From NCBI RefSeq assembly GCF_015999335.1, contig NZ_JAEACP010000024.1:1-64000 (forward strand): DNA of 64,000 nt, given 5' to 3'. Position 1 is the first letter of the stretch, and every line of letters starts with the position of its first letter. The notes under the pieces were generated by a model. It was given only the letters and a program-made list of their open reading frames with translations. It made no database searches and was not told where the DNA came from. Shown one piece after another: positions 17,399 through 42,166 of this stretch. The translations under genes and the position numbers were made by a program. This DNA is from Tabrizicola soli. Its GTDB lineage: Bacteria > Pseudomonadota > Alphaproteobacteria > Rhodobacterales > Rhodobacteraceae.

Positions 17399-17778
17399 GG
17401 AGTCCGAATACAACCGGTGTCGAACAGGAGTTGGTCGCACGTCTTTGTGTTGAATACTGGAAGCTCGTCAGGGCCAGCCAGCGTGCAGCACAACAGTTGC
17501 CGGACAAGGATGGAAGGCGCATGGCGGCCCAAGTGAGGTTTTCGGATCTCCAGCTTGCAACCATCTCTGGGCAGCTTGGTTTGAACCTGGTTTCGTTTGA
17601 CGGTGAACAATTTTCTGTTGGAATGCCCGCGTCGGCAGATAATGGAGACGACTTCAGTCAGGACGAGGACCTCGTTGTCGCCAAGACGCTCGAGCCTGCG
17701 GTCGTGCGAGAGATGAAGGTGGTCCACAAAGGACGGGTTCTCGTTGCGAGGCGCAGCGATGAAGTGCAGGAGGAATAG
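17392..17778 (+). CDS. Small protein between J-like and Hsp70 genes
   Basis: A 128-residue protein overlapping the J-like gene by seven bases and ending two bases before the Hsp70 start. The N-terminal helix (VEQELVARLCVEYWKLV) and C-terminal beta segment (TLEPAVVREMKVVHKGRVLV) are loosely reminiscent of a short nucleotide-exchange factor with a beta wing, but the similarity is too weak to name GrpE. Its fixed place in the operon suggests a regulator or adaptor of the Hsp70. The centre is acidic and probably flexible. Confidence 0.5.
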   Translation: MVGSPNTTGVEQELVARLCVEYWKLVRASQRAAQQLPDKDGRRMAAQVRFSDLQLATISGQLGLNLVSFDGEQFSVGMPASADNGDDFSQDEDLVVAKTLEPAVVREMKVVHKGRVLVARRSDEVQEE

Positions 17779-17780
17779 CT

Positions 17781-20297: not shown

Positions 20298-20530
20298 TGA
20301 GGCAGTGGCAGCCGCAGTTTGATCGGAATGTCTGGGGGAAAGTGATGGTTCTTTGGTGGGTGACAGTTGATCACCTCAACGCCACATCAACCTGCGACTG
20401 CTGGCATCGCGCCGGTCTTGCGTGTGAATCCGTGCGAATGCTGATGTTTGCGAGGACGAAAACCACGCCGGAACAAAGGCTTGCCTCGTAAGTCGTTGGT
20501 TTTTCTGATTATTCGGTTTTGCCCTTCCAT

Positions 20531-20578
20531 GGGCTCATAACCTGAAGGCCGCAGGTTCAAATCCTGCCCCCGCAACCA
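20531..20578 (+). tRNA. 3' fragment of tRNA-fMet (CAT anticodon), probable attachment-site remnant
   Basis: From GGGCTCATAACC through a T-arm with GGTTCAAATCC to a terminal CGCAACCA, the sequence matches the 3' part of alphaproteobacterial initiator tRNA. The 5' half, acceptor strand and D-arm are absent: the preceding bases cannot pair with the CCCCGCA acceptor strand. Such 3' fragments are what integration into the tRNA 3' end leaves at the distal junction of an island, so this is a likely att remnant rather than a working tRNA. The serine recombinase gene runs into it from the right. Confidence 0.75.
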
Positions 20579-27347: not shown

Positions 27348-27427
27348 GGGATGCTCCTGAAACGGCATGACGGGGGAGGGCGCGGGAAGGCCCCGCGCCG
27401 GTCGCTGTCTCGAAAAGGGAGAAAGGG

Positions 27428-27955
27428 TCAGGCGAAGGCGGCCGGACCCGCGTCACAGTCGAGGCCCGGGTCCGCCCACGCCTCGGCGCGCGCGTCGAAG
27501 GGATCCTCGAGCGCCAGCCAGGACTCGAGCCCATCCAGCGCTGCATCGATCTGCACGTTGACCTGGTGCGCCCCGGCGATCTTACCCGGCACCCGATAGG
27601 CCCAGCGGCGCAATCGCGCATTCGCACGCAGGTCCGCGACCTCCTCGGGATCAGGCGACTCGCTCACATCCATGAACAGCCGTGCCACCCGCTGCACGCT
27701 GCGGTCAGCCTCACCCTCCGCCGGGGTCGCCAGAACCGCCGCGCAGGCCGCCTTCGTCGCCGCCAGCGACGCATCCGCCGCCGCGATCCATTGATCAACG
27801 GCCGGGTCCTGACCCGAGTACCCGCACAGGTCCCGCTCGTCCTCAATCAGGCGGGGAAGCGTGCCGAGGAAGGCGGTGAAAAGGGCCAGAACGGAAACCG
27901 ACGAGGTCGGGGCTTTTCCATCACACTTTTTGACGCTATAAAGAGAAGTAGTCAT
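27428..27955 (-). CDS. Hypothetical helical protein
   Basis: A 175-residue protein started at 27955 (MTTSLYSVKKCDGK), the first ATG after the divergent regulatory region; the frame continues upstream through the promoter only as random sequence. It is helical, with a conserved-looking VSVLALFTAFLGTLPRLIE and Ala-rich AADASLAATKAACAAVL. There is no signal peptide or catalytic motif. It is the first gene of the minus-strand run that continues into the zinc-ribbon and FtsH-like genes, so it belongs to the same maintenance module. Confidence 0.55.
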   Translation of the reverse strand: MTTSLYSVKKCDGKAPTSSVSVLALFTAFLGTLPRLIEDERDLCGYSGQDPAVDQWIAAADASLAATKAACAAVLATPAEGEADRSVQRVARLFMDVSESPDPEEVADLRANARLRRWAYRVPGKIAGAHQVNVQIDAALDGLESWLALEDPFDARAEAWADPGLDCDAGPAAFA

Positions 27956-28040
27956 TCCAGTCTCCTTGCATGAGGGTCTGTGTCTGGCCAGGACGGGGTG
28001 CGAGGTTCCAGCTCTGCCCCGTCCGTCCATGAACACTAAA

Positions 28041-28075
28041 TAACTACATAAAGTCGTAAAGTCAAGAAGTGTGCC
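28041..28075. promoter_or_regulatory. AT-rich divergent promoter with direct repeats, likely RHH operator
   Basis: The 120 bases between the divergent 175-residue gene and the ribbon-helix-helix gene are AT-rich and contain TAAAGTC twice in tandem (28049-28055 and 28057-28063), just before the RHH start. Ribbon-helix-helix repressors bind short direct or inverted repeats, so autoregulation through this site is plausible. No experimental support is available. Confidence 0.4.
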
Positions 28076-28267
28076 ATGAAAAAAATGGGGCGTCCGCCCG
28101 TCGATACTGAAGCTGTGACCGTGCGTCTGCCTCGCGAACTGATCGCCGCGCTCGATGACGCGCGTCGTGAGGATCCGGAAATGCCGACGCGGCAAGAAGT
28201 TATCAGGCGGGTTCTGGTCGCATGGCAGGCTGGTCGCTCGGCCCATGACGACGCTGGCGCATCCTGA
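28076..28267 (+). CDS. Ribbon-helix-helix (CopG/Arc-like) regulator
   Basis: A 63-residue protein with the RHH pattern: the strand AVTVRLPRELIAALDDARRE followed by the turn and helix PTRQEVIRRVLVAW. The N-terminal MKKMGRPPVD is typical of small plasmid/antitoxin-type RHH proteins. It is divergently transcribed from the adjacent minus-strand genes and probably represses the shared promoter. No toxin partner is visible immediately downstream. Confidence 0.75.
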   Translation: MKKMGRPPVDTEAVTVRLPRELIAALDDARREDPEMPTRQEVIRRVLVAWQAGRSAHDDAGAS

Positions 28268-28692
28268 GCGCCGGTGCCTCTGGCAGGTGCATGTGAAGAG
28301 CCGCTCTTTCGCCTAAGGATTGAAGCGCCGCTGACGGATCGTGAAGTTCGCCTTCCTCGACCGTCGCGTGCCAGGCAAGCCTGCTCCTTGGTGTCAGGCC
28401 CGTTCGTCGATCGCGCGGGACGCCGCGGCGCATCTGGACCGGCTCTTCGATCTCTTGCAGGTCCAGGATCTACTCAAGCAGGGGGGAGGGGATATCAGTT
28501 CAAGCTCCCCAACCGGGTCCCCGGCAGGCCGAGGGCATGCACCGGCTGTCGTGCTATATCTTGCGCTCTGCGGCCGTCGGATAGGGGGCGGACAACGGAC
28601 GTTCGTCGCAGTGAGCAGTTCCGTGACTTCGTCCCGAAAGCAGCCATTCGATGAAGTGGACGGGCCTGTCGTCGAACCTTCTCTGGCTTACT
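28268..28692. other. Gap between RHH gene and radical SAM operon
   Basis: About 425 bases. Open frames exist on plus but are low quality, without ribosome sites or family resemblance, and they mutually overlap. The sequence becomes AT-richer toward 28690, where the radical SAM gene ends. It may be decayed mobile-element sequence; nothing can be identified. Confidence 0.4.
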
Positions 28693-29295
28693 TTACCTGC
28701 AAAGCCGGTCATCGGAATGAATAAGGGGAAAGCCATTGATACCCAAACGCTCATCCAGTTCGATGCGAACCTCTATTGCCGGACGGTCATCAGAAGACGT
28801 TTCGATCGACGCGTCATATCTCTGGGAAAGATAGTGAAATCTCTGGTTCGCTGACCCCACCCAATTTCGGCTTGAGTCCCGCCGGGCAGCAACGAATGGT
28901 CCATCGACAAGTACATCTGTATGACTCAGCAATTGCTGGACTCCGGGGAGGTTACGTTGGCGCAGCTGTTCCAACCGAAAGCCAGTGAACACCATCACCG
29001 ATAGTCGCCGCAACTGGCAGAAGGCGGCGACTTCCGCCAACCCCTTTGCCTGGTAGGTCGGCTCACCTCCAAGGAAAGTTACGCCTTCGATCCCGTAGAT
29101 GTCACTGGCCTGTTCGATTTCCAAAGCGATCTCGGACGTCGACATCACCTGCCGACGCACGAAGGGCAACAGTTCTTGGTTGCAGCAGCCGGGGCAATCT
29201 ATGTCGCAGCCCTGGACCCAAAGTGCATACCGCAACCCTGGGCCCTCAACGGATGTGTAAGGGATTCGATTTGCGATATTTAGGTAGCTGGTCAT
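28693..29295 (-). CDS. NrdG-like radical SAM protein (last gene of five-gene operon)
   Basis: A 200-residue single-domain radical SAM protein. The cluster motif is C30-x3-C34-x2-C37 (WVQGCDIDCPGCCN), ligating a 4Fe-4S, and GGEP at 76-79 binds SAM. Size and TSVEGPGLRYALWVQGC resemble ribonucleotide reductase activases, but no reductase gene is nearby. It overlaps the ClpB-like gene by four bases, so it belongs to that operon. It could install a glycyl radical or modify a nucleotide or peptide. The motifs are clear and the role is unknown. It is unlike viperin, which is longer and MoaA-like. Confidence 0.85.
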   Translation of the reverse strand: MTSYLNIANRIPYTSVEGPGLRYALWVQGCDIDCPGCCNQELLPFVRRQVMSTSEIALEIEQASDIYGIEGVTFLGGEPTYQAKGLAEVAAFCQLRRLSVMVFTGFRLEQLRQRNLPGVQQLLSHTDVLVDGPFVAARRDSSRNWVGSANQRFHYLSQRYDASIETSSDDRPAIEVRIELDERLGINGFPLIHSDDRLCR

Positions 29296-31133
29296 GCTGC
29301 CTCGAGCACCACTCGAACCGAGTCATCCGGAGTCAGCACGACGACGAGGGTCTTGCCGATACACATGCTTCGCTCCGAAACCTGTGTGAACAAGAAATTC
29401 GACACCGGGTCGATCAACCACTTTGTCAATGCTGTTATGGCACCACGCCCCCCCATAGTCGGTTCGATGTCGCGGGCGACCCTGTCAAGAAATGTACGCT
29501 CGTCCGCGATCCGAACAGCCCGGATGCCATACTTGTCTTGGAGCTGCGCCCGAAGCGGGCCGAGTTTGCTGCGCATGATTTCGGCCAGAAAACCTCTGTC
29601 CCGAACGAAATTGAACGCGACGATATTGTCACCAATGCGGTTCAGAAGCTCGGGTCGGCCCATGTCTCGGACGAAATGGTCCCGCACTCTGCGTTGAAAT
29701 GCGTCCCTCGCCTCTTCGTCACTGGATGCCGGATCGATTTCTGCTGCGCCAATATTCGATGTGAAGATGATGATTGCTTCAGAAAAACTTACAGTTTGTC
29801 CGCGTCCATCCGTTAGTCGACCGTCCTCGAGTATCTGAAGGAACTTATCGAGAATCCGCAGGTGAGCTTTTTCAATCTCATCGAAGAGTAGGACGCAGAA
29901 TGGGCGTTTCCGGATGGCATTTGTAAGTTGTCCGCCCTCCTCATAGCCAACATATCCTGGAGGCGCGCCAACAAGTCTTTGATCGCTGTGTTCGTGGTTG
30001 AACTCGGACATGTCAAAGCGAATGAAGGCTTCCTCATCGCCGAAAAGGAATTCTGCAAGGGCCTTTGCCAGCTCCGTTTTTCCGACCCCCGTGGGCCCGA
30101 CGAAGAAAAGTGTTCCCTTCGGCATTCGTTGCCTTCTGGAATGCTGCAGTCCTGCAAGTCCGGTATATGCTCGGATCGTTACTGAGGTTACCTTTTCAAT
30201 GGCGTGTGATTGCCCCTTCACCCGCTCCGCCAAAACCTCAGGCATCGTTAGGAGTTTATCGCGACTGAGCGCCTCCCAAGCGCTTGTTTGGATGCCGTGG
30301 CGATAGAGGCTCAGAAGCTGGTCGGCAGTCAGCTCCGCAGTTTCGGCAGACCGGCGGGACAGCTCTTCGATGTTGAGAATATCCTGACACGACATCCCGT
30401 CCAGAGCATCGACGAGATCGTCGTAAGCCACCTGGCCTCGCTTGGGCTGGTTCTTCAGTTTCCACTGATGGAGGCGATCTCCTAGAAGCGTCGTCCGCTC
30501 CTCTCGATCCGGCAGCGGCACCACTACCTCGCGGACATGGGCAGGTCCAGGCAGCATGGAGAGGGGAAGCGCATGAGCGGTAGGCGAGATCAAGACCAGA
30601 AGATTTCTGGGGCCCGTTGCCTCCGTCGTGTCCCGTCCGATGATTGCCTTGGCAAGTCGAGCAAGTAGGTCCCGCTCAGTTTGCGAAGGCTGTTGGCCGA
30701 ACGAGAAAGCGAAGTTAGCTAGATCGACGACAAAGGCTGTTGGTCGGTCTGTACCATCTACCATTGCGGCAAGCATAACTGCGACAAAGTCCTCTGTGGT
30801 CACAGAAGCCCCTTGCGGGCCGCTATCGAAATGCGCCTCAGGTGCGACAGCATAGGCCGCGCCACTCGCCTCCCTGGGCCCTACCGCTCTTGCAAGATCC
30901 TCCCATCTCGCGGCGTCGCGACCTTGAATCCCTGTCACCGGATCCCATTCGATCACCGTCTTGAAGGTCCCTTCCCGAATAGCGTCGGCAACCAGTTGCG
31001 GCACACGTTGATACTCCATCGTCCAAGGATTTCGACGCAGATCATGGACTTCTCCGTGAACGACGATGCAGGAAATTAACCCGGCGTTGGCTTCCAGGCT
31101 GAGCAACCAGGTTGGGCGATGCACGGAAGTCAC
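29292..31133 (-). CDS. ClpB-like AAA+ ATPase with degenerate first module
   Basis: A 613-residue AAA+ protein. Residues ~1-290 look like an AAA fold that has lost Walker A (CIVVHGEVHDL at the P-loop position, FVVDLANFAF at the Walker B position). Residues ~300-613 form a Clp/Hsp100-type second module with Walker A GPTGVGKT at 346-353, pore loop GYVGYEEG at 393-400, Walker B LLFDEIEK at 415-422 and MGGRGAI sensor 2. No Clp N-domain or middle coiled coil is present. It probably remodels protein or nucleoprotein complexes made by its operon partners. Start and stop overlap both neighbours by four bases. Confidence 0.85.
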   Translation of the reverse strand: MTSVHRPTWLLSLEANAGLISCIVVHGEVHDLRRNPWTMEYQRVPQLVADAIREGTFKTVIEWDPVTGIQGRDAARWEDLARAVGPREASGAAYAVAPEAHFDSGPQGASVTTEDFVAVMLAAMVDGTDRPTAFVVDLANFAFSFGQQPSQTERDLLARLAKAIIGRDTTEATGPRNLLVLISPTAHALPLSMLPGPAHVREVVVPLPDREERTTLLGDRLHQWKLKNQPKRGQVAYDDLVDALDGMSCQDILNIEELSRRSAETAELTADQLLSLYRHGIQTSAWEALSRDKLLTMPEVLAERVKGQSHAIEKVTSVTIRAYTGLAGLQHSRRQRMPKGTLFFVGPTGVGKTELAKALAEFLFGDEEAFIRFDMSEFNHEHSDQRLVGAPPGYVGYEEGGQLTNAIRKRPFCVLLFDEIEKAHLRILDKFLQILEDGRLTDGRGQTVSFSEAIIIFTSNIGAAEIDPASSDEEARDAFQRRVRDHFVRDMGRPELLNRIGDNIVAFNFVRDRGFLAEIMRSKLGPLRAQLQDKYGIRAVRIADERTFLDRVARDIEPTMGGRGAITALTKWLIDPVSNFLFTQVSERSMCIGKTLVVVLTPDDSVRVVLEAA

Positions 31134-32323
31134 TTCCTTCGTTCCCCAGAGCTATCCGGCAAGCGCTTCTCCGACTTGCCGATCATGTCTGGATTTCGCC
31201 AAGATACCTTCTCATCTTCGAGATCGATCCCATAGATGTCCTGCAGCCGAGGCATAACTTTGTCGGCATCTTCAAGGCAGGCTTGGCCTTGGTAGTGGTC
31301 GAACTTGTAGCTCATCCCGTCCAGATTCACACGAAAGGCCGCCTGTGCTCCCGAGGGGCGCTGCGCCTTGATCACAACAGCAGAGGCCTCGCCGCCTTCG
31401 AGCTTCGGTTCGGAAACGATGAAACCCGCGTTGCGCAGTTCACGCAGCAGGCCGCCGACCACGTGCCGCCGTGCCGCCTCCCGAAGTGCGCGGTCATCGG
31501 CGTCCTGTCGAATGGTTGCTAGGCTGTCATCCAAGCTTTGCATGGTGGACCGCGCGTCGGCCAGACTGGATTGCAGATTCCTGATCATCGACTGCGCAAA
31601 ATCGTCGCCCAGCCGCCTGTAAACTGCCAGCGCGTCCTCCAGAACGGCCGACATTTCACTCCGTTCCTCGTCGCGTTGCTCTGCAAGCTTCAGTGATTCC
31701 GCCTTCGTCCGTGCGTTTCCCGTTACCTCGACAATTCGCCCCTCCAGATCGAGGCGGACCTGCGCGATGTCGTCAAGACTGAACCTGATACTCTCAATCT
31801 CGTCACTTAGCGCCTTGAAATCCGGCTGGCAGAGGTCGCGTTCAATGGCTCCCGGCAAGGATTGACGGGCCTTGCGGATCATTCCAAGCAAATCCTCGCG
31901 CGCAGCCTGTTCCTGCGAAACTCTGTCGGCGCGCTCATCACGTTTGGCGGCAATGCGCTCGCGCGCGGCGTCACGTTCCGATTCGACTGCGGCCTGGGCC
32001 GCTTCCCTCTCGGCCGCTTGGGCTGCTCGACGGTTCTCTCGGGCACGGCCGCCCAAGGAGCGCATCAAGGCGGACAGGCGGATGTTTTCCTCTCTCGCCT
32101 GCTCCGGATCTTGGGAGAGGAGACGCTCGACCCGCTCAAGGGATGCGCGACATCTACGGTAATCCTCGGGGACGTAGGCGTCCAAACCCTGTGCAACCAA
32201 GGAGTCTAAGCGCTCCCGATTCCTTAAAGCATAACCCTCTGTCACCTCTCTGATGCGGCCGAGATACATCTCTCTCCGCCTACGTGCCTCGATCCGCCAG
32301 GCTCGTTCCGCGACAAAACTCAT
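31130..32323 (-). CDS. Coiled-coil protein of the five-gene operon
   Basis: A 397-residue protein that is mostly heptad-type helix from ~5 to 290 (for example AAQAAEREAAQAAVESERDA), ending in a compact C-terminal domain at ~295-385 (LLRELRNAGFIVSEPKLEGG then AAFRVNLDGMSYKFDHYQG). No catalytic motif is seen. It starts three bases after the PIN gene stop and overlaps the ClpB-like gene by four. It looks like an adaptor or scaffold linking the ATPases; the family is not recognised. Confidence 0.7.
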   Translation of the reverse strand: MSFVAERAWRIEARRRREMYLGRIREVTEGYALRNRERLDSLVAQGLDAYVPEDYRRCRASLERVERLLSQDPEQAREENIRLSALMRSLGGRARENRRAAQAAEREAAQAAVESERDAARERIAAKRDERADRVSQEQAAREDLLGMIRKARQSLPGAIERDLCQPDFKALSDEIESIRFSLDDIAQVRLDLEGRIVEVTGNARTKAESLKLAEQRDEERSEMSAVLEDALAVYRRLGDDFAQSMIRNLQSSLADARSTMQSLDDSLATIRQDADDRALREAARRHVVGGLLRELRNAGFIVSEPKLEGGEASAVVIKAQRPSGAQAAFRVNLDGMSYKFDHYQGQACLEDADKVMPRLQDIYGIDLEDEKVSWRNPDMIGKSEKRLPDSSGERRK

Positions 32324-32326
32324 GGG

Positions 32327-34201
32327 TCAGCGCCTTTTCTTTGTGTTTTTGGAAGAACTCATGAAAATTTCTGCTGTCATCGTTTCTATACCGTAGGGTT
32401 TGCATCTGGCTACAAAATCGCCGTCCTGCGCGACAAGAATTACTTTGTTGCCAGCTTGGCGGTATGGAATCAGAGTTGCAATGATCTGCCCATCCTCGTT
32501 CGGCGTATCACCCGGTGCGAGAAAGCTGAAATCATGAAAAGGCGCCGCCCACCGGTCTCCTGGCAGTTGGCGAACTGAACGCAAATTCCTTCGGCTTATC
32601 ATGCGAAAGTCATCCCGCTGCCCTTTCTTTCGCTCGACTTCGCCAGCAACTGTCTGTGGAAAAACAAGGAAGTCGGTGGGCAAGAGATGGTCTACAAGAT
32701 CATCAAATTCGATAAAGGACGAAGTGTCGAAAGCGATAACTCTGTCACAGGACTGCGGAACCGATACCAATTCATGAGTGGTCTTCTGTTTGCTTGACGC
32801 CAGTTCCTTTGCTGAAGGGTCGAGATCCGCGAGTTCCGGATGAGTTTTGCGGAACTTCTCCAATCGGAGGTCGCGGGACAATGTTTCCAGCAAAGACTCC
32901 AGAACTGGATATGGAAGCTTCTTCAGAGCCTGGACGATTTCTACCATCCATTTACGCTCGGCGGTTTGGCTACCTGACTGTTCGTACAGCCGGCGCCAGA
33001 AGTCTGCCGGGTCCAGCCAGTAGGCTGGCAAGACAACAATCTCTGGGGTATCGGAAAATCGACATTCCGTTTCGAGCGCTGCGATCACATCGCGCCAGGC
33101 TGACCCCTCAGAGAGAAATCCGGGTACTGCGCGATAGACACCTATTTCAGCGTGCACGCCTTCCCAAATTACCGGAAGCCGAGAAAACTCACGCCCCTCG
33201 CTCGCCCAAAAGACACCAGAAATTCCTGGATTGTCATTGCGCGGATAAGCAACCTGCATAGCCTGTTTCTCCGAAGACATCGATATAGTCGTCGGTTCCT
33301 TGATGTGGGCCGCAGGATCAAGTTCCACCAGAACAACAGACTGTGCCAGGGCAAGTCCCGCCCGAACCGACTCGGGAAGGCCGCGGGTCAAGAACAGACC
33401 GCCCAGACTTTCTGGTAACTGGCAGTCGATGGAGTACTCTACTCCTTCTGCAACTGGCTTCCGCAAAGATCCGTCCAAGCTGTTCGGCAGCAGCCACGAA
33501 CGTCGCACGATCTGACTCAGACCGCGCAAATACTCGCTTTCTCGAGGATCTCCACAATCGACGGAAAGTTCACCGTCGCGGAGGACGAGTTCTGCCGTGC
33601 TGCGTCGCCATCGGTGGCCGACCAGTTCTGATGCGGCTGTGTATAGCTGCACGTCGTCGTGCAACTCGGTCCTAAGTTCACGCTCGACCCAATGTGTCGG
33701 CGGGTGCCGGAGGAAGGGTTCGGCAGGAACGCAAAAGCGCTGGTCATCCTCCACCTCAGGTGCGAGATCGTTGCCGCCGACGATTTCTTCCAGAACCGGG
33801 TCAAAGAATCGCTCGATCTTCCGAGTTTGAGCCGCTTGCTTTTCTGTCTCCGACATATTGGACCGATGTCCCAAATTTGTTGTACTTCGTCCGGGCGCGA
33901 GGTCGATAATTCGAAGCAATAGAGGATCGACATCGCCTTCCCCAACTCGATGCACACGGCCGCGATCAATCAAGTCGGAAAGCACGTCAGGCAGGATCTC
34001 TTGGGAACCAGATATTCCAAAGAGCTGACGGAAAAGCTCGGTAATGGGAACTGCGGCCAATGGGTTGCTGCTGGTCGCGAACTCTTTCACTGCAGCTTCC
34101 AGCGCCCGATGCAAAGGCGTCAGTTCTGGAAGGAGACGATAGGCAACCTCTGCACGAAGGTGCAGCACCGGAAACCAGACTGATACGGACCCGAGCCTCA
34201 T
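32327..34201 (-). CDS. PIN-domain protein of the five-gene operon
   Basis: A 624-residue protein. The start at 34201 (MRLGSVSVWFPVL) overlaps the helicase stop as ATGA, which is better supported than the ATG at 34258. Residues 1-~480 are unknown. The C-terminal PIN-like RNase domain (~485-620) shows the acidic quartet: FDTSSFIEF, VAGEVERKKG, NEDGQIIATL and VAQDGDFVARC. PIN domains cut RNA with metal ions, so it is the obvious nuclease effector of the operon. The large N-terminal part may sense or bind partners. Confidence 0.8.
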   Translation of the reverse strand: MRLGSVSVWFPVLHLRAEVAYRLLPELTPLHRALEAAVKEFATSSNPLAAVPITELFRQLFGISGSQEILPDVLSDLIDRGRVHRVGEGDVDPLLLRIIDLAPGRSTTNLGHRSNMSETEKQAAQTRKIERFFDPVLEEIVGGNDLAPEVEDDQRFCVPAEPFLRHPPTHWVERELRTELHDDVQLYTAASELVGHRWRRSTAELVLRDGELSVDCGDPRESEYLRGLSQIVRRSWLLPNSLDGSLRKPVAEGVEYSIDCQLPESLGGLFLTRGLPESVRAGLALAQSVVLVELDPAAHIKEPTTISMSSEKQAMQVAYPRNDNPGISGVFWASEGREFSRLPVIWEGVHAEIGVYRAVPGFLSEGSAWRDVIAALETECRFSDTPEIVVLPAYWLDPADFWRRLYEQSGSQTAERKWMVEIVQALKKLPYPVLESLLETLSRDLRLEKFRKTHPELADLDPSAKELASSKQKTTHELVSVPQSCDRVIAFDTSSFIEFDDLVDHLLPTDFLVFPQTVAGEVERKKGQRDDFRMISRRNLRSVRQLPGDRWAAPFHDFSFLAPGDTPNEDGQIIATLIPYRQAGNKVILVAQDGDFVARCKPYGIETMTAEIFMSSSKNTKKRR

Positions 34202-37200
34202 GTATGGCGATTCCCGGACCGGGTCGTACTTTCCCCAAGGATGTCTTTGGCCTGCCATAGGCCACCGATAGCCTTGATGTCGTCTATGATTTGGCCATAC
34301 ACGCAGACCCGCTGTGATGGACCACCATCAACAGGTTCGATCGCGACATCGAACCTCTCGAATGTCTTTCGCGCACCGACAACGATCAACAGGTCGCGCG
34401 CACGTGAAAAGGCGACGTTTATCCTTTCAAATTTCGCCGGGTTTGAATTGCTGCCAAGACGCCGTGATCTGTTACGGACCATGCTCACGATCACAATGTC
34501 CGCTTCCTTTCCTTGGAACCTGTCGACCGTTTCGACGTCAATCTGCTGATCGTTGAATCGCCGCCCGAGCTTTGCCTTCAGCGCGTCTCGGATCAGATTT
34601 TTTTGGCGATTATAAAAGGTTGCGACCGCGATGGCCTTTTTTCGCTGTTCCCTTTCGCACCCGTCAAGGATGTCTTCGACCATTTGGGCCACAAGGCGTG
34701 CTTCAAGCTTGTTGCCGATGCCCTTACCGTCGCTGTCTTCATAGGCGGGCCGCCCTGCTTCGTCATCTGAACTGTCGATCCAGAGCGCATGCAGGTGCGG
34801 GACCAGATACTTCCCTCCCGTGCGAGAATTCAGGGTGAGACCATGCATCCGCCATGACCACCCGGAACTATGATCAGACCCATCCGGATCGATCAATCCT
34901 GACTCCAATCGGCCGTCGTAGAAACGATTTACAAGGTTCATAATTTGAGGATGCATTCGATATTGGGTCTGCAACGCGGCTTTTGCCCCGGCATCAATCT
35001 CTGCGAATCCGTCTCGAAACAGAGATGCGGTAGTCAGGCGTTCATACTTGCGAAGTAATTCGGCCTCACGCTCGAGGGCATCCTGGTCCTCATCTTCCGT
35101 CGGCGACTTGTCTGACGATCCGAAAGACGCAAACTCGAAGGTCGGAGGAAGTTGGCGATGATCCCCGACAAGGATGGTCTTTGGCGCTAGGAGCATGGGG
35201 CGTAGAAGTTCCAGTGGCGTCGCCTTGCTGACTTCATCGATGATGACCACATCAAATCGGGGAAAGCCGCTATCGGATAGTATTTTGAAGTCAGAATTAC
35301 AGGTTACGCCGATGACATTCGCACTGCGGACGTAGCGCTCTCCCATTCGATCGGAGGCAGGGGGATTCTCTGCTTGCCGCCTAAGGTCGATGACCCACCG
35401 ATCCAATTGAGGCAACCACTCCCCGAGTGGCTCAGTGTCGTCCAACCGCACCCTTTGTAAATCGGCATGACGTTCGACGACGTTGATCCCAGAAGCCAGA
35501 TCTGTCGGCGCCCCCGGCAGATCGATAATGCTGCTCATTTCGGACAACAGATTCTGGCTCTTCGCATGTATCTCGCTCGCACGGCTTTGCGCGTCCTCAA
35601 ACGACTGCCGCGCCCGCTGAACGGCCGCCTCGAGATGAGCAGGAGTCAATGAAGAAGTATTCTCTCCATCGAGGAGCTCTGGCGGAGGGAAGACCACACT
35701 GGGCCATGAGGCGAGTATCTTCCGCCTGATCTCCTCGGCTTCCAGCGAACCAGCCCCGTCTGCACTCAGCAGAGCCTGGATGCCCCGAACACGCTCCTGA
35801 GTTTGGCTGTGTAACGCACGTGGCGAGACGTCAAGGCGCGGGGGCTTGCCGTCAACAGAAGCAAATAGCCTGAGCAGTTCAGTCGCGTCAGAAGCAAGCG
35901 CCGGAGAGAAGCAGGAAGGATCCCATTCGGACAATGTAGCGAGGGCATCATGCGCCATCTCCCACCAAGCAGCGCGTGCTCGGGCTTCCGAACTCATCGC
36001 TTGAAGGCGCCGGACCTCCGCAAGCCTTACTTCCAAACGGCGCAAGTTGTCTTCGCCCTTCTTCAACTCTGAAGCGGCTTGGCCTCGATCAAGTTCGAGC
36101 TTGCGGGCACGTTTCAGCCAGCTCTCCATGCGCCCGACTTCATCCGTTAGCGTCCGAAAAGGATTGCATACTTCTTCCACATGCTTTGCGGCCATACGAT
36201 ACCAGTCTGCAACGGCAAGCGACTTCTTCTGTTCACCCTCGCTCTTGCTGATCCAAAGAGGTCGGACCTCAGGATCACCGATCAGGCGCTCAAGTGCGTT
36301 CTCGACAGCGAGGTTCGTCTGCGATGCAATCAGTACCCGTAGTCCGGATCGCACGAAATGTGCACAAGCCGCAGCAATCATCGTTGTTTTTCCGGTCCCG
36401 GGCGGGCCTTGGACGTATGCGATTTCCGGTGCCGCGAGCATGACTTCAACCGCTGCTCCCTGGTCCTCATTGAGCCTGTAGAGTTTGGCGATCTCTTTAT
36501 TCAGGAGCCGACCTGGTTTTGCGGTCGCGACTGCTGCCTGCGCCACATTGAACAGGGTTGCCATCAAATACGGTGCGGCGGGCAGACGATTGCCTTGACG
36601 GTATTCCGTCGCTCCGAGTTGAAGTTGCGCCAAGGCACTTCTGTATCGGGATAGCTGAACCTCTGAGCCAATTGCCTCCGTCATATCACGAAGTCCTAGC
36701 GGTGTGCCGCTTGGTAGGTCGCTGAGTTCGGAGGCATCCCGGCGCGAAAATTTCATGCTCACCCGGTAGGGAAGTGAACTCGTCCACGGGCAATCTTGCA
36801 TGCCAACAGGCTGCGGCTGCGCAGGACCAATCACCTTGTAGTCAATGCAACGATAGGCTTTGGGGTTGTCTTCACGGCCTTTCCGGTGCCATGCCTCCTT
36901 CAGCATATACACTTCGAGACTTTGGCGTGCGTCTCCTCGTGCCCCTTCACCCGAGAAGCTGCGGACTGTGTTCTTGTCCTCACAATAGACTTCGCCTTCC
37001 CATGTGTCGTTCGTCCATGTCCTTGGACCCAGCGCGGCCCAAGGAGCTTTTTGCAGGATCAGGTCGCTCGCCCAACTAAGGTAACCTTGCCAATCGCTCA
37101 AACGACCTTGAAGTTCATCCAACAATGTTGGGGACGACGCATTGGCCTGGTCCAGAAGCTCGTCCAGTGGCGAGGCCACTAGCGGCAGCGAGGTCCGTGA

Positions 37201-39090
37201 CGAATGGCGCACTAATGCTACGGTCCGCTCGAACGGACGCGGCTCACAATCTGGAACCAAAGCTGCGTCAAGAATGAAGAGTGTCGTGTTGTCAGGCGTT
37301 TTCTTTGAGCTGTAATCAAGACGACAGAGCACACAAGCTGACATGGCGTCTGGAAGCCGTTCCCGAAGTTGAGGCAACACCAGTGCAGGTCTAACCAATA
37401 AAAGGAGGCTTTTGTCTGCTTTCGATATAATCGAGATGAAGAATTGACGTTCATCTTCATCATCGCCAAACACGATATCGCAAAAGCGGTCTATAAGTGC
37501 TGCACGCTCGTCCTCGGCCGGCGTGGTTTCACCAAGAATGGACGCCAGAACAGTTGCGAGCCTTTCATCGTCCTTTCCTTCGTACCCAGTTTGCACGCGA
37601 CGCTGAAGCAAGATCGGTTGTGTGGCTTTAGGAGATGGCCCATCGCCCTTCCGCCTATATGACAAGCGTACATGATGTGTCTGGCTCTGGAGGTTATCTT
37701 GCTCCCGAAAGGAGTTCTTGGTTGAATCATAGACCATTCCGGCACGTTCTGCGCGATCCAGAAGTCTGAGACGGAGTCTGCGTTGCTCGCGTTCAAGATG
37801 CTCAAGTTGGCCTTCTTCCTGTCGTCGCCAATCAAGGAGGTCCGCGTCGAGCCTTGTCCGCCGTCTTTCAATCACCTGCGCAAGCCGTGTAAGATTCTTC
37901 TTTGCACGTACTTGTTGCGCAGTCGCAGCAGCGATTTCCTTCTCAATCCCAGCAATTTGGCTTTCCGCCTGACGGATCGTGGTCGCCAAGTTTGCCTCGA
38001 GTTGGCTCTGACAGTCATTGTCATAACGCGTCTGCAACGTCAAAAAATCAGACCGCTGCGCGTCCAGTGTGACGGAAAGCTCCCCAGCCAATCGCTCGAT
38101 TTCAGCGATGCGCGTCGAGGCATCACTGATGTTCTGCCGAGCTTCTTCAATCAGCTTTCGGCGAACGGCTTCGGGCAGCAAGCCCAGTTCTCGTGTATGT
38201 TCCCGACCCAGTTCATCAAGCTTTGCCTTGAAATTTTCTGCCGCCGCCCGAGCAATGTCCAGACGCTCCTGTTGCGCGGCGATGTCCGTCAGGATTTCAT
38301 TCTCCCCTCGCCACAAAAGGTTCCGAGGGTCAAGACGGCGCGCAAGCCAGCCAAGATGTCGCGCTGCGTCCAACTGTGACGCGCGATCGCGTGCCGCATC
38401 TAGCTCCTTTCCTAGCTTCTCCAGTTCGGTCTCAGCAGAAGAGAACTCATTGCGCCTGTCCGCAATCGTTTTAGCTATTGCCTCTGCGGAGCGTTGAAAT
38501 TCAGCAGTAATGTTGTGCTTCTCTCTTGCAAGGGCGTCTTGGTATTTTTCCGGTTCGCCACCCGAAGCCAGGATCAACACGATTTCGTCGCTGTCATTCC
38601 TGAGCGCTGCACATTCCTGCCCCTCTAGAAAGAGCTTCTCGGCGCGATCCCTGAGAATTTTGATCTGCTTATCACGTTTCTCTATTTCATGAGCCGTATC
38701 TGACAAAGCTGCTTCGACAATAGATTTAGCCGCTGCAATCTCTAATTCGGTCCACTGGTTTGACTTCCATCTATCGGCGAGCGATTGAATGCGGATACGA
38801 TCGTCTTCAAGTTTCCGAATCTGGGCAGTTGCTGTCTCGTAACCTGCTTCTGCGCTTGTACGGTATGCCTGCAACCGTTCAAGCCTAGTCATTGCGCTTT
38901 TTTCTAGCAAGGACTTCGCAACGAGGAAGTCTTCCCGGACTCGATTAGATTTATGGATAGATGATTGCAAATTCACTTCGTCTTGGCGAAACGCGATGCG
39001 CACATGATCAATCAGGAGGCCTGCAACACCTTCGGAGAATCGTTTCGAAGATGTACCCTTTGGTATTCCGTCCAAGTTCGTCGCTTTCAC
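34198..39090 (-). CDS. Giant Upf1/Dna2-like SF1 helicase with coiled-coil arm
   Basis: About 1630 residues. The start is uncertain: a GTG at 39090 (VKATNLDGIPKG) begins the plausible coding part; a TTG at 39237 is also open but has no ribosome site. Residues ~70-500 are coiled coil. The SF1 helicase has Walker A GPPGTGKTT (~895), Walker B IIDEVSKATP (~1283), GDHRQLPP (~1310), RMHPQIMNLVNRF, then VDRFQGKEADIV (~1525) and INVAFSRARDLL (~1563), all intact, as in AAA_11/AAA_12 helicases. No PLD or other nuclease domain is visible in it. It is the first gene of the operon. Substrate (RNA or DNA) is unknown. Confidence 0.85.
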   Translation of the reverse strand: MKATNLDGIPKGTSSKRFSEGVAGLLIDHVRIAFRQDEVNLQSSIHKSNRVREDFLVAKSLLEKSAMTRLERLQAYRTSAEAGYETATAQIRKLEDDRIRIQSLADRWKSNQWTELEIAAAKSIVEAALSDTAHEIEKRDKQIKILRDRAEKLFLEGQECAALRNDSDEIVLILASGGEPEKYQDALAREKHNITAEFQRSAEAIAKTIADRRNEFSSAETELEKLGKELDAARDRASQLDAARHLGWLARRLDPRNLLWRGENEILTDIAAQQERLDIARAAAENFKAKLDELGREHTRELGLLPEAVRRKLIEEARQNISDASTRIAEIERLAGELSVTLDAQRSDFLTLQTRYDNDCQSQLEANLATTIRQAESQIAGIEKEIAAATAQQVRAKKNLTRLAQVIERRRTRLDADLLDWRRQEEGQLEHLEREQRRLRLRLLDRAERAGMVYDSTKNSFREQDNLQSQTHHVRLSYRRKGDGPSPKATQPILLQRRVQTGYEGKDDERLATVLASILGETTPAEDERAALIDRFCDIVFGDDEDERQFFISIISKADKSLLLLVRPALVLPQLRERLPDAMSACVLCRLDYSSKKTPDNTTLFILDAALVPDCEPRPFERTVALVRHSSRTSLPLVASPLDELLDQANASSPTLLDELQGRLSDWQGYLSWASDLILQKAPWAALGPRTWTNDTWEGEVYCEDKNTVRSFSGEGARGDARQSLEVYMLKEAWHRKGREDNPKAYRCIDYKVIGPAQPQPVGMQDCPWTSSLPYRVSMKFSRRDASELSDLPSGTPLGLRDMTEAIGSEVQLSRYRSALAQLQLGATEYRQGNRLPAAPYLMATLFNVAQAAVATAKPGRLLNKEIAKLYRLNEDQGAAVEVMLAAPEIAYVQGPPGTGKTTMIAAACAHFVRSGLRVLIASQTNLAVENALERLIGDPEVRPLWISKSEGEQKKSLAVADWYRMAAKHVEEVCNPFRTLTDEVGRMESWLKRARKLELDRGQAASELKKGEDNLRRLEVRLAEVRRLQAMSSEARARAAWWEMAHDALATLSEWDPSCFSPALASDATELLRLFASVDGKPPRLDVSPRALHSQTQERVRGIQALLSADGAGSLEAEEIRRKILASWPSVVFPPPELLDGENTSSLTPAHLEAAVQRARQSFEDAQSRASEIHAKSQNLLSEMSSIIDLPGAPTDLASGINVVERHADLQRVRLDDTEPLGEWLPQLDRWVIDLRRQAENPPASDRMGERYVRSANVIGVTCNSDFKILSDSGFPRFDVVIIDEVSKATPLELLRPMLLAPKTILVGDHRQLPPTFEFASFGSSDKSPTEDEDQDALEREAELLRKYERLTTASLFRDGFAEIDAGAKAALQTQYRMHPQIMNLVNRFYDGRLESGLIDPDGSDHSSGWSWRMHGLTLNSRTGGKYLVPHLHALWIDSSDDEAGRPAYEDSDGKGIGNKLEARLVAQMVEDILDGCEREQRKKAIAVATFYNRQKNLIRDALKAKLGRRFNDQQIDVETVDRFQGKEADIVIVSMVRNRSRRLGSNSNPAKFERINVAFSRARDLLIVVGARKTFERFDVAIEPVDGGPSQRVCVYGQIIDDIKAIGGLWQAKDILGESTTRSGNRHT

Positions 39091-39280
39091 TCTACGGATG
39101 CATGTTGAACATGCTTTTTGTTGAAACTGATCCGTTCCTGGCAATCCCTTGCGCCAAGATTCGATGCGCCACCGTTCTTTAGTCTGGGTATTTCTTGGGG
39201 ACGTATAAATCTGAAACTTCCAAGAACAACGGCACAACTATGCTGCAAGTTGCGATGCTCATTGAAACTGGCAAACATAC

Positions 39281-39652
39281 TCAAACTGCACCACCTTTTT
39301 GGTTCAGCATCATCGTGTCAATTTCTGGTTCATCCCAGCGCCCAGAAACTGCCATCCACTTTTCGATCTCAGCTTTCAGTCCCGGCTCGTCAGCGCACAA
39401 ATGAAACGTGTAGAGCCGGTTCACGATATCTCGCATCAGGTCGTGCATTTCCTTGTCACTGATACGCGAGACATCTGTCCACGCGATGTGTTGTCCATAG
39501 GCGTCGACGACGGTCACGTCGCTCCAGTCGCCGGCCTTTGTTTCCGGCGTCTTGCCTGCATGGAGGGTTTCAAGGTGCGTATTGCGCACGCACAGCATCG
39601 CCATGGTCTTGGCAAGTTTGGCCGCGATACGCTTTTCGGCTTCATTGTTCAT
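39281..39652 (-). CDS. Conserved hypothetical protein
   Basis: A 123-residue protein started at 39652 (MNNEAEKRIAAKL); a GTG two codons upstream is possible. I recall a small family of mobile-element proteins with NTHLETLHAGKTP and DLMRDIVNRLYTF, present here at ~27 and ~75, but no function is known to me. It lies about 190 bases upstream of the helicase on the same strand. Promoters of the helicase operon may lie between them. Confidence 0.6.
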   Translation of the reverse strand: MNNEAEKRIAAKLAKTMAMLCVRNTHLETLHAGKTPETKAGDWSDVTVVDAYGQHIAWTDVSRISDKEMHDLMRDIVNRLYTFHLCADEPGLKAEIEKWMAVSGRWDEPEIDTMMLNQKGGAV

Positions 39653-39709
39653 TGGCACAGGTTAATGCCAAGCGTATCATCGTGCCATAGGGTTCAGGAT
39701 GTGCTTGGC

Positions 39710-40009
39710 TCAAAAATCCGTCTCGACGCAGACCCCCGCACAATCGTAGGCGGAGGCGGTCGCGCCGGTTTTCATGAACAGCCGCTGCGACAGGAACTGC
39801 GTGGCCGCTGGCAGGTCGGCGGCGATTTCCTGCTCGAACACCGCGCCGGAAACCTCGTCGACGACGCGCACCCAGACGGATGATCCGTTCGGTGGGGCAG
39901 CGATGAAGAGGGTGAGAACGCCGCCCAAGGCGATGGCGAAGGACCCGCCAATGTCGGTCAGCGTCGATGCGACCGTGCCGTCGCTTGCGACAAGCTGTAA
40001 AGTGAGCTC
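39710..40009 (-). pseudogene. C-terminal fragment of a phage structural-type protein
   Basis: The frame reads ELTLQLVASDGTVASTLTDI, IGGSFAIALGGVLTLFIAAP, then VSGAVFEQEIAADL to a stop after GVCVETDF, without any plausible start or ribosome site. It looks like the tail of a phage tail or adsorption protein. Upstream of 40009 the similarity is lost next to GGTCTAGACC. It is interpreted as debris of a prophage at an island junction. The family assignment is tentative. Confidence 0.4.
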
Positions 40010-40285
40010 GGGTCTAGACCTTCGAACGACCGCTTACGAGTGTGCCGCTTAATGAGCCCGACCGACAGTTATGGGCCGCGAGCGACGCCTCGTTCGATAA
40101 GGGCGGAAAGCGGACATTCAAGGCGTGCCTCGATCTTTAGACCGTCCAGGCAAGACTTCGGGCTGTACGCCGGGCATGCCATGCCCGTCGTGTTCAGTCA
40201 CTGCAGGTCTCTACGGACCCGTCCGGCTCGTCCAACACAGCCATCACGGCCACCGGTCCCGCCGACCCATGACCCGCTGTCCTTG

Positions 40286-42166
40286 TCAGGATTCCGCTAG
40301 CAAGTGCTTGTAGATGGTTGTCCGCGAAATGCCGAGTGTTCTCGCCGCCTGCGCGATCCCACCATGCTGGCGCACTGCATCGCGGATAACCCGGCACTGG
40401 CTTTCCTTCCACGGCACCCCCGAACATTGCGGACACGCTTGGATGGACTGCTGTGGCGAATGACTTATTGGCAGGAAGGGCGCGAAATTTTCGGCGCGCA
40501 GCTTGGGCCCTGACGCCTGTATCACGGCGTTCGCGATGATCGACCGCAGTTCATGCAGATTTCCCGGCCAATCATGGCGCGCAAGTAGGGTAAGGGCAGA
40601 AGGATCAATGTCGAAGCCCTCTCCCTGCGCGCGCACGAAGCGGCGTGCCAAAGCATCCAGATCGCTGCGGTCCCGCAGGGGCGGCAATAGGATCGAGAAG
40701 CCTTCGATCCTGTAGCGGAGGGCGGGCAGCAGGCGGCTTGCCGCGACCTCGGCGGTCAGGCTGACGGTCGCGGTGCTGACGAAGAGGACGGGGCACCGAA
40801 CTTCGCGCCCGTCCGCCGGATGCCTGAAAGATCCGTGATCCAGCACATGCAACAGCGTCGCCTGCGCGGAATGTCCCAGCGCCGAGACCTCGTCGATGCA
40901 AAGCGTCCCATGCGCGGCCTGTTCGATAAGCCCCGGCGCACCTTTGGGCCTACCGAGAAGGGCAGCTTCCGCATCGGGGCCGAGGGTTCGGGCGTCCACC
41001 GACACGAAAGGCCCGGAGCGGCCGGACGCAGCGTGTGCGAGGCGGGCGATGATTTCCTTGCCGGTGCCCGTTTCGCCCTGGATGAAGATGGACTGTCCGA
41101 CGGTGGCGACCTTGGGCAGGGGACGAAGGCGGCGGATGAGCTCCTCATCCTCGATCACCACGTCGCGGAAGAGGTTCCTGATTTCTGGGGCGGGTGTCTC
41201 GCTTCGCCGCGCCTGCTGCGGATTGGCCGCAGAAAACAGGCGGACCGCAAGCGCAAAGCTCGCCCGGTTGGCAACGCAGCGCACCGATACGGCAGAGCCC
41301 ATGCGGTCCCGCACGCGCAGCGTTTCCCCCTGCGCCAGACGCAGGGCCACATCCTCGAACCGCTGTTCGAAGATGGAGTCGAAACTCGTGCCGATCAGGT
41401 TGCGGATTCCGGCCAGAAACATCTCGCCCTTGCGGTTCACGGCATGGACCGAGAAATCATCCTCGAGCACCAGCATACCCACCGACAGGGTGCCAAGATA
41501 TTCGGGGCGCGGGTGAAATTGTAGGACGATGCGTCGGTCATGGGCCGACCGGATCAGGCAGTTCTCGATATTGCTGGCCGACATCTGGACAAGAGCAGCC
41601 GTGTGCTGCTGCCGCACCGTCGAGCGCGAGGAGGCATCCAGAATGCCCGCAAGGCCACCCCGCCCGTCGAAGATCGGCGCGCTGATGCAGGACACGTCCG
41701 AATGCGCCCGCAGGAAATGCTCTCCCCCGTAGACCTGTGCCGGTCGTCGGGTCGAGATGCACAGACCCAGCGCATTCGTTCCGCGCAACTCCTCGGTCCA
41801 GACGGAGGCGGGAACGACCGCCTTGCCGGCATCGCTTTCCGCGAATTCCGTGTCCACGAGCGTTTCCAGCACCACCCCTTCAGGCGAGCCGAGCGCGATC
41901 ATGAAGTTAGACCCCGCGATCTGGTCGAACAGCAGTTCCAGTTCGGGTCGCGCGAAACGCACCAGATCGGCGTGGTGGTCCTGCGTCAGCTTGAACTCGG
42001 TATCGCTCAGAATCAGCTTTTCATGGCGCGCTAGGGGATCAATCCCGAGGTGCAGACTGCGCAACCAGCTATCCGAGATGTCACCCGGAAGCGCGCCGCC
42101 CGGAAACCTTCCCTGGCTTTCGAGCATGTGGCGTGCGCGCGCGAGCGCGGTCGTGCGGATTTCCAT
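40286..42166 (-). CDS. AcoR-like GAF/AAA+ transcriptional regulator lacking GAFTGA
   Basis: A 626-residue regulator, started at 42166 with GGAGG 11 bases upstream. An N-terminal GAF-type sensor (~30-200) and PAS-like region (~225-330) precede an AAA+ domain with Walker A QGETGTGKE and Walker B GTLCIDEVSAL. A Fis-type HTH ends the protein (GIAQAARTLGISRTTIYKHL). Where bacterial enhancer-binding proteins have GAFTGA, the sequence is LLGRPKGAPGLIEQAAHGTL: the sigma-54 contact loop is missing. It is divergent from the alcohol dehydrogenase/ABC operon and should be its alcohol- or polyol-responsive regulator, probably acting without sigma-54. Confidence 0.9.
   Translation of the reverse strand: MEIRTTALARARHMLESQGRFPGGALPGDISDSWLRSLHLGIDPLARHEKLILSDTEFKLTQDHHADLVRFARPELELLFDQIAGSNFMIALGSPEGVVLETLVDTEFAESDAGKAVVPASVWTEELRGTNALGLCISTRRPAQVYGGEHFLRAHSDVSCISAPIFDGRGGLAGILDASSRSTVRQQHTAALVQMSASNIENCLIRSAHDRRIVLQFHPRPEYLGTLSVGMLVLEDDFSVHAVNRKGEMFLAGIRNLIGTSFDSIFEQRFEDVALRLAQGETLRVRDRMGSAVSVRCVANRASFALAVRLFSAANPQQARRSETPAPEIRNLFRDVVIEDEELIRRLRPLPKVATVGQSIFIQGETGTGKEIIARLAHAASGRSGPFVSVDARTLGPDAEAALLGRPKGAPGLIEQAAHGTLCIDEVSALGHSAQATLLHVLDHGSFRHPADGREVRCPVLFVSTATVSLTAEVAASRLLPALRYRIEGFSILLPPLRDRSDLDALARRFVRAQGEGFDIDPSALTLLARHDWPGNLHELRSIIANAVIQASGPKLRAENFAPFLPISHSPQQSIQACPQCSGVPWKESQCRVIRDAVRQHGGIAQAARTLGISRTTIYKHLLAES

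What the first reader, a model, noticed from the sequence alone, without database searches (positions are those of the whole stretch)
28693..39237. Five-gene coupled operon: SF1 helicase, PIN nuclease, coiled coil, ClpB-like AAA+, NrdG-like radical SAM
Seen: the genes abut or overlap (ATGA at three junctions, a 3-base gap at the fourth), share a lower GC than the surroundings, and all key motifs are intact (GPPGTGK and DEVSK; PIN quartet; GPTGVGKT; CX3CX2C and GGEP). Known: the parts occur separately in immunity, but I recall no named system with this set. Inferred: helicase and coiled coil sense or remodel foreign nucleic acid, AAA+ controls assembly, PIN cuts RNA, and the radical SAM enzyme makes a modification or glycyl radical. 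This is the best candidate in the window for an undescribed system.
Basis: partly seen in the sequence, partly recalled or inferred. Interest (0 to 1): 0.85.

Follow-up and report, generated by a model that had tools for sequence, protein, structure and literature searches.

The report
Unnamed five-gene helicase-nuclease-radical-SAM cassette
A tightly packed set of five genes, kept in the same order in bacteria of several phyla and carried on several plasmids near virus-defence genes, looks like an unnamed immune system that probably cuts foreign RNA under the control of a protein-threading motor and a radical enzyme.

Summary
The operon is real: UPF1-like helicase (H), PIN nuclease (P), coiled coil (C), ClpB-type AAA+ (A) and NrdG-like radical SAM (R), minus strand. 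One junction is GTGA rather than ATGA, and the helicase probably starts near 39075. The set is conserved: H-P-C-A-R was found in 32 of 82 loci collected with R alone, in seven phyla by record titles, and in all six opened of ten plasmid records that carry C. Catalytic residues are almost invariant. Defence or restriction genes lie within 25 kb of 4 of 5 distinct plasmid copies, BREX-1 and BREX-3 among them. In Rhizobium plasmids A+R stands with a different helicase-nuclease protein, so A+R looks like a control core with exchangeable effectors. R lies next to the radical SAM of FtsH ternary systems in the tree. The host has no NrdD and no glycyl-radical domain, so R is no ordinary NrdG. No name for the set turned up in PADLOC 2023, NCBIfam or the open papers searched. 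Most likely: a mobile defence system that degrades RNA, gated by A and matured by R. Function is inferred only.

The parts
34198..39075 (-). H: UPF1-like superfamily 1 helicase; its long N-terminal region reads like coiled coil (no coil predictor run). ORF open to 39237; TTG start at 39075 by alignment
   Evidence: Pfam AAA_11/AAA_12; PDB SMUBP-2 4b3f E 9.5e-27, DNA2 and UPF1; PADLOC MkoA E 1.4e-99; start by alignment with Leisingera
32327..34201 (-). P: poorly conserved N-terminal part plus C-terminal PIN nuclease
   Evidence: PIN_4 in 29 of 30 family members at E up to 0.1 (0.0059 in the window protein, below the Pfam cut-off); SMG6 PIN E 2.8e-9 by profile and first two Foldseek hits; D511 and E540 in 36 of 36, D589 and D612 in 34 of 36 sequences, numbered from the ATG at 34258
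31130..32323 (-). C: long helical coiled coil with a small C-terminal alpha/beta domain holding an invariant Y-x-G-x-x-C motif
   Evidence: AlphaFold2 mean pLDDT 86, low after residue 370; Y344, C349, D352, W375, N377, P378, D379 in 38 of 38 sequences, G346 in 37 of 38
29292..31133 (-). A: AAA+ protein, first half without Walker A, second half of ClpB/ClpC D2 type with GYVG pore loop
   Evidence: ClpB D2; Walker A absent before and present after RVKGQ in 31 of 31, GYVG in 31 of 31
28693..29295 (-). R: small NrdG-like radical SAM enzyme, CX3CX2CC and GGEP
   Evidence: Fer4_12 and Radical_SAM; NrdG model 98.9 bits, below its 126.1 cut-off; C30, C34, C37, C38, G76, G77, E78, P79 in 36 of 36

Best explanation
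A horizontally moving defence-type system that destroys RNA. The UPF1-like helicase H loads on foreign or aberrant RNA. The PIN protein P, joined to it, cuts that RNA, much as UPF1 works with SMG6 or Nmd4 in eukaryotic RNA surveillance. The AAA+ protein A, a ring with one dead and one live ATPase tier and an intact threading loop, holds the effector pair inactive or remodels it through the coiled-coil adaptor C when infection is sensed. The radical SAM enzyme R installs a modification on a component of the system, most likely on the invariant Tyr-x-Gly-x-x-Cys region of C, that the complex needs to mature or fire. Shown here: gene set, order, conserved catalytic residues, mobility, defence neighbourhood in most of the distinct plasmid copies, exchange of the nuclease partner in relatives, absence of known R clients in the own genome. 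Inferred: defence, RNA as target, that the first half of A is a dead AAA tier, the gating role of A and C, and the substrate of R.
For: Order H-P-C-A-R in 30 of 82 loci by the first profiles, 30 of 30 in order and on one strand, plus L038 and L054 with better profiles. The independent marker C hit ten plasmid records; the six opened all carry the five genes. Catalytic residues nearly invariant in 36 sequences. The tree of R does not follow host taxonomy, and copies in Leisingera, Tropicibacter and Citreicella are 96-98% identical. Neighbours on plasmids: BREX-3, BREX-1 and DarT, AbaSI-family REase, HsdS and ArdA, TIR protein and HsdR-N; in one genome locus Csm3/Cas7. Nearest solved relatives of P are SMG6 PINs, with Nmd4 bound to Upf1 at Foldseek rank 15, E 0.010; of H, SMUBP-2, DNA2 and UPF1. 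In L010 A+R is followed by one protein with kinase, DUF4011, helicase and MTES_1575 REase domains that matches PADLOC PDC-S37 and Hhe. No NrdD or Gly_radical match in the own genome. C349 of C in 38 of 38.
Against: No experiment. The system is rare: 2 of 390 genomes of the order with P, own genome included, and among 398 of the phylum with C only the own genome plus one weak partial match that I did not examine. PADLOC gave strong hits for only 2 of 10 large 3' flanking proteins. Polaromonas pPNAP02 shows no named defence gene nearby, and Pfam found none in the 10 window ORFs tested. UPF1-group helicases also act on DNA, and H matches DNA2. A+R is not without exception: A was not found in L034, L039 and L063, of which L034 and L063 show only H and R. 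No direct evidence ties R to C.
Confidence: 0.42

Rival explanations
1. Same defence role, but the target is DNA: the helicase unwinds invading DNA or R-loops and PIN cuts single-stranded DNA, as in helicase-nuclease systems with REase partners.
For: The Rhizobium variant L010 carries an MTES_1575 REase domain on the helicase protein. H also matches DNA2. Two plasmid copies lie near BREX systems.
Against: The PIN is closest to SMG6, an RNA endonuclease, and the helicase to the SMUBP-2/UPF1 group.
Confidence: 0.2
2. A cellular RNA quality-control or stress system, not defence: H and P clear stalled or damaged transcripts, A disaggregates, R repairs or matures a component.
For: The SMG6-like PIN with a UPF1-group helicase and the ClpB-type D2 are quality-control parts in other organisms.
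Against: Rare and scattered distribution, plasmid carriage, recent transfer, defence neighbours and different nuclease partners in relatives do not fit housekeeping.
Confidence: 0.15
3. R makes a small antiviral molecule or signal, like viperin, and the other four proteins sense or respond to it.
For: Weak match of R to viperin models (PADLOC pVip E 0.0032; NCBIfam viperin E 0.026). Further radical SAM genes sit in separate neighbouring cassettes of several copies.
Against: R is a 200-residue enzyme whose best curated model is NrdG and best PDB match is the PFL-activating enzyme, both of which act on proteins.
Confidence: 0.12
4. R is an ordinary activator of ribonucleotide reductase that happens to lie at the end of the operon.
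For: Fer4_12 and NrdG similarity; in Fervidicella (L057) an NrdD gene lies close by.
Against: The own genome has no NrdD and no Gly_radical match, while 6 and 3 of 14 control genomes ring; R scores below the NrdG cut-off and the R rows of five-gene loci fall on one side of a 100/99 branch.
Confidence: 0.02

Closest known systems
FtsH ternary systems (Kaur et al. 2020, PMC7159879; section 21 read)
   Same: Neighbouring clade of radical SAM enzyme; next to an AAA+ protein that, by the paper, has a dead first and a live second AAA domain
   Different: There the AAA is FtsH type, with an M41 peptidase in L059, beside fvmX proteins; a UPF1-like helicase, PIN or C was not found at the 29 loci classed so
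Mokosh (system recalled; MkoA label)
   Same: UPF1-like helicase; H matches MkoA at E 1.4e-99 over residues 856-1656
   Different: Mokosh pairs its helicase with a PLD nuclease (recalled); here PIN, C, A and R, none of which matched a Mokosh model
CoCoNuT type II/III (PMC11090510; passages read)
   Same: UPF1-like helicase, coiled coils, a nuclease effector and a AAA+ motor in one locus, predicted to target RNA
   Different: CoCoNuTs are McrB GTPase systems; here the motor is ClpB type, the nuclease is PIN, and a radical SAM enzyme is added
Hhe / PDC-S37 (PADLOC and NCBIfam labels)
   Same: The giant protein beside A+R in L010 matches PDC-S37 (E 9.4e-139) and Hhe (E 7.6e-65)
   Different: Hhe is a lone protein (recalled); the window has separate helicase and PIN and no REase match
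Eukaryotic UPF1-SMG6 / Upf1-Nmd4 (structures 2hww, 2dok, 8rd3)
   Same: UPF1-group helicase beside a PIN protein of the SMG6 type
   Different: No evidence of shared descent as a pair; the bacterial set has A, C and R in addition

Membership tests
FtsH ternary system | FtsH-type AAA+ with dead first AAA domain | tested here: not met
   A is ClpB/ClpC D2 type. Its first half lacks Walker A; profile match to the first domain of the L084/L085 AAA is weak, P 8e-4, and to the other FtsH-type AAAs P 0.005 in their second domain; four controls P 0.09-0.66
FtsH ternary system | fvmX domain proteins | tested here: not met
   No fvmX match in any of the five; C domain against X3 P 0.26, against X5 P 0.029
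FtsH ternary system | radical SAM enzyme of this clade | tested here: inconclusive
   Neighbouring but separate: each group on one side of a 100/99 branch in an unrooted tree
Mokosh | MkoA-type helicase | tested here: met
   MkoA E 1.4e-99
Mokosh | PLD nuclease (MkoB) beside or fused (recalled) | tested here: not met
   No PLD match in the five
CoCoNuT | McrB-type GTPase | tested here: not met
   A is Clp type; only trace similarity to the McrB model PRK11331, E 0.0058
ClpB disaggregase | full-length ClpB | tested here: not met
   ClpB model matched only at 542-834 of 853, 282 bits against a cut-off of 1232
NrdG | score above the curated NrdG cut-off | tested here: not met
   98.9 against 126.1 bits
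NrdG | partner NrdD in the genome | tested here: not met
   0 matches in the own genome; 6 of 14 control genomes ring
Anti-phage defence system | protects cells from phage | not testable with these tools
   needs an experiment
Anti-phage defence system | located in defence neighbourhoods | tested here: inconclusive
   Yes for 4 of 5 distinct plasmid copies; strong PADLOC hits for 2 of 10 large flanking proteins of genome loci; none among 10 window ORFs by Pfam; no random-locus control run

The most novel reading that the evidence does not exclude
A bacterial RNA-surveillance immune complex built like a minimal nonsense-mediated-decay core (UPF1-like helicase plus SMG6-like PIN), kept silent and fired by a half-dead ClpB-type ring, in which the radical SAM enzyme makes an unprecedented radical modification on the invariant Tyr-x-Gly-x-x-Cys motif of the coiled-coil adaptor; the AAA+/radical-SAM pair is a portable control core shared by several different nucleases.
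Probability: 0.15. Interest if true: 0.92.

Novelty: new variant of a known kind. Interest (0 to 1): 0.7.

Why it matters
If right, it adds an unnamed, widely spread immune system in which a radical SAM enzyme is part of the machine, in at least one host that has no recognised glycyl-radical protein for it to serve, and it shows one AAA+/radical-SAM core working with different nucleases. It also offers a prokaryotic pairing of a UPF1-group helicase with an SMG6-type nuclease, which makes the question of how such pairs pick their RNA testable in a simple host.

Tried and rejected
Considered and rejected. R as an ordinary NrdG: no NrdD or Gly_radical match in the own genome. Membership in FtsH ternary, Mokosh, CoCoNuT or ClpB: see the membership test. 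Link between the C-terminal domain of C and fvmX3/fvmX5: hhalign P 0.26 and 0.029, not supported; DUF2997 matched 3 of 38 members at best E 0.014, too weak. The coiled-coil protein X of the Rhizobium variant as a relative of C: P 0.086 and 0.093, not supported, though the X alignment there also held two stray ORFs of L009. The small ORF upstream of H (39281-39658) as a sixth gene: no alignment with the Leisingera ORF in the same place and no tblastn hit at 1e-3 in the held loci. Foldseek for C: best hits RnlA and spermine synthase at E 0.028-0.07, not used as evidence. E. coli: 0 of 5426 genomes hold at least 80% of the A gene of L025 at DNA level; the ten rows listed are all clpB. Phages: 2050 records match R; in the 15 rows listed the annotated ones are NrdG or hypothetical, and the rest are unannotated. 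Viral contigs: 2 loci, neither with H, P, C or A. Repeats bounding the island: nothing convincing among those listed for 27400-40400.
Full report
What is there. Five genes lie head to tail on the minus strand at 28693-39075. In order of transcription they are H (helicase), P (PIN), C (coiled coil), A (AAA+) and R (radical SAM). The junctions are ATGA, a 3-base gap, GTGA and ATGA, so the finding is right except that one junction is GTGA. The ORF of H runs to 39237, but the annotated Leisingera protein aligns from TTG 39075 on. The block is poorer in GC (0.53-0.59) than its flanks (0.64-0.71).

Domains. H: Pfam AAA_11/AAA_12, best PDB relatives SMUBP-2, DNA2 and UPF1, best PADLOC model MkoA E 1.4e-99. 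P: PIN_4 at E 0.0059 in the window protein, below the Pfam cut-off, but at E up to 0.1 in 29 of 30 family members, best 1.2e-23. The family profile finds the PIN of human SMG6/EST1A (E 2.8e-9). Foldseek of the model ranks EST1A and SMG6 first and second (E 2.0e-4 and 8.9e-4), with yeast Nmd4 bound to Upf1 at rank 15 (E 0.010). The model of P is weak outside the PIN (mean pLDDT 69); the order of elements at about 48-122 could be a winged helix, which I did not test. C: helices to about residue 298 and a small sheet-and-helix domain (mean pLDDT 86, low after 370), without a convincing fold match. A: the second half is a ClpB/ClpC D2 with Walker A and the GYVG threading loop in 31 of 31; the first half has no Walker A in 31 of 31, and an IG[FLI] loop of the ClpP-binding kind was not found in the second half of the window protein. 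That the first half is a dead AAA domain is inferred; no structure of A was predicted. R: Fer4_12 and Radical_SAM, nearest curated model NrdG but below its cut-off, nearest PDB entry the PFL-activating enzyme.

Conservation. P was found in 2 of 390 genomes of the order, the own genome included. tblastn with the first half of A against 72,556 plasmid records gave 17 records: ten of the five-gene type and seven of Caballeronia and Rhizobium. Of the ten I opened Leisingera, two Moellerella, Photobacterium, Acinetobacter and Polaromonas, and these six hold H-P-C-A-R; four more Moellerella records were not opened. C as an independent marker gives the same ten records and no other. In 398 genomes of the phylum C matched the own genome and, weakly over 173 positions (E 7e-6), one other that I did not examine. 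The five genes were seen in 30, in one order and strand in 30 of 30, and in L038 and L054 with better profiles, 32 of 82. 41 of 82 hold at least three of the five, 29 are FtsH-ternary-like, 12 are other; several contigs are short. By record titles and the tree legend loci with five genes fall in Pseudomonadota, Actinomycetota, Bacillota, Lentisphaerota, Synergistota, Planctomycetota and Campylobacterota, and a partial one in Myxococcota; some are MAGs whose binning could be wrong. Coupling: H/P overlaps in 24 of 30, and each of the four junctions is within 30 bases in 27-30 of 30 loci (starts were picked by script).

Conserved residues. In 36 sequences (30 loci, five plasmid copies and the window): PIN D511 and E540 36 of 36, D589 and D612 34 of 36; R cysteines C30, C34, C37 and a further C38, and GGEP, 36 of 36; helicase motifs (GPPGTGKT, DEVSKATP, GDHRQLPP, QxRMHP, QGKE, NVAxSRA) 34-36 of 36; the D2 motifs of A 35-36 of 36. 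By contrast only four columns of the first 500 or so residues of P reach 90% (about nine in the 30-row alignment), so the N-terminal part of P varies quickly, as a sensor might (inference). In C, Y344, C349, D352, W375, N377, P378 and D379 are the same in 38 of 38 and G346 in 37 of 38.

Variants and kin. In L018, L024 and L037 the order is C-A-R, then a protein kinase and a UPF1-like helicase; in L024 vWA and PP2C genes lie between. That vWA-PP2C-kinase set recalls TerY-P (from memory; PADLOC did not match the vWA and PP2C genes). In Caballeronia and two Rhizobium plasmids (L009, L010, L011; three of seven such records opened) A-R is followed by one giant helicase ORF; that of L010 has kinase, DUF4011, helicase and MTES_1575 REase domains and matches PADLOC PDC-S37 and Hhe. 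So A+R recurs while the nuclease changes. There are exceptions: in Helicobacter (L039) no A was found, and in L034 and L063 only H and R. Of the 38 loci with R but none of the other four, 29 are FtsH-ternary-like by ORF similarity to proteins of L059 or L085; in L059 Pfam finds fvmX5, X3-analog and X7, a weak fvmX6 and an FtsH-type AAA with M41 peptidase. Kaur et al. describe a radical SAM effector and an AAA with dead and live FtsH-type domains in such systems (PMC7159879, section 21 read). In the unrooted tree the 47 R rows of five-gene or partial loci lie on one side of a 100/99 branch, and so do the 29 others on theirs; the 13 unlabelled rows were not counted. The first half of A matches the first domain of the L084/L085 AAA only weakly (P 8e-4; four controls 0.09-0.66).

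Neighbourhood. Leisingera: BREX-3 and Fic. Acinetobacter: BREX-1 and DarT. Moellerella: AbaSI-family REase, HsdS, ArdA, PD-(D/E)XK nuclease, integrases. Photobacterium: TIR protein, HsdR-N, integrase. Polaromonas: nothing named as defence. For ten of the 18 genome loci with a full 3' flank I gave PADLOC the largest flanking ORF: two gave strong hits (Csm3/Cas7 in L049, PrimPol in L019), L027 and L042 weak ones, six none. In the window, Pfam of ten flanking ORFs found among others an Hsp70-like protein and a serine recombinase but no defence gene. No random-locus control was run. Copies in Leisingera, Tropicibacter and Citreicella are 96-98% identical over 10-13 kb, so transfer is recent.

What it most likely does. 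The own genome has no NrdD (PF13597) and no Gly_radical (PF01228) match while 6 and 3 of 14 control genomes ring, so R does not serve a known glycyl-radical enzyme there. The recurring A+R pair next to changing nucleases suggests that R modifies something of the system and that A gates the effector. In the window type the effector is a UPF1-like helicase with an SMG6-like PIN, which points to RNA. C is the natural adaptor and, by its invariant Cys and aromatic residues, the most likely substrate of R; this last step is a guess that mass spectrometry can test.

Novelty. No paper with the set was found (search listings; passages read in PMC7159879, PMC10853773 and PMC11090510, and section 21 of the first). 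The library holds only openly licensed PMC papers. PADLOC-DB is of 2023 and DefenseFinder was not available, so a recent name cannot be excluded. CoCoNuTs (PMC11090510, passages) show a similar plan of UPF1-like helicase, coiled coils, nuclease and AAA+ motor, but with a McrB GTPase. I therefore rate it a new variant of the helicase-nuclease defence kind; the AAA+/radical-SAM core is the really unusual part.

Noticed in passing
L028, L031, L042, L043, L048, L058 (fragment in L046): Directly beside the five-gene operon sits a separate cassette of a second radical SAM gene and a JmjC_2 protein, with an LRR protein in five of these six (not seen in L031); no plasmid relative at E 1e-20.
   Followed up: partly
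L026, L032 (radical SAM gene alone in L025, L033, L041): Another neighbouring cassette: radical SAM, histidinol-phosphatase-like and a 375-aa protein. Relatives of this radical SAM occur on three enterobacterial plasmids that are not among the records with C; in the two opened they lie near AbpA, DUF262 or methyltransferase genes.
   Followed up: partly
window 15473-22250: A low-GC pair of genes, a 641-aa protein without Pfam match and an Hsp70-like 838-aa protein, next to a large serine recombinase; possibly a further island.
   Followed up: no
window 50045-51661: Lower-GC ORF with a phosphohydrolase-associated (HD_assoc) domain.
   Followed up: no
L057:10756-12898: In Fervidicella the operon lies next to an NrdD gene and a short stretch that matches R; A is split there.
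   Followed up: no
L092:6909-10597: A viral contig carries a radical SAM gene related to R next to an fvmX7 protein of the FtsH ternary kind.
   Followed up: no
L073:12499-14247 and L096:37796-39472: Carbamoyltransferase genes lie near the five-gene operon in a Ruminococcus MAG and in Moellerella.
   Followed up: no
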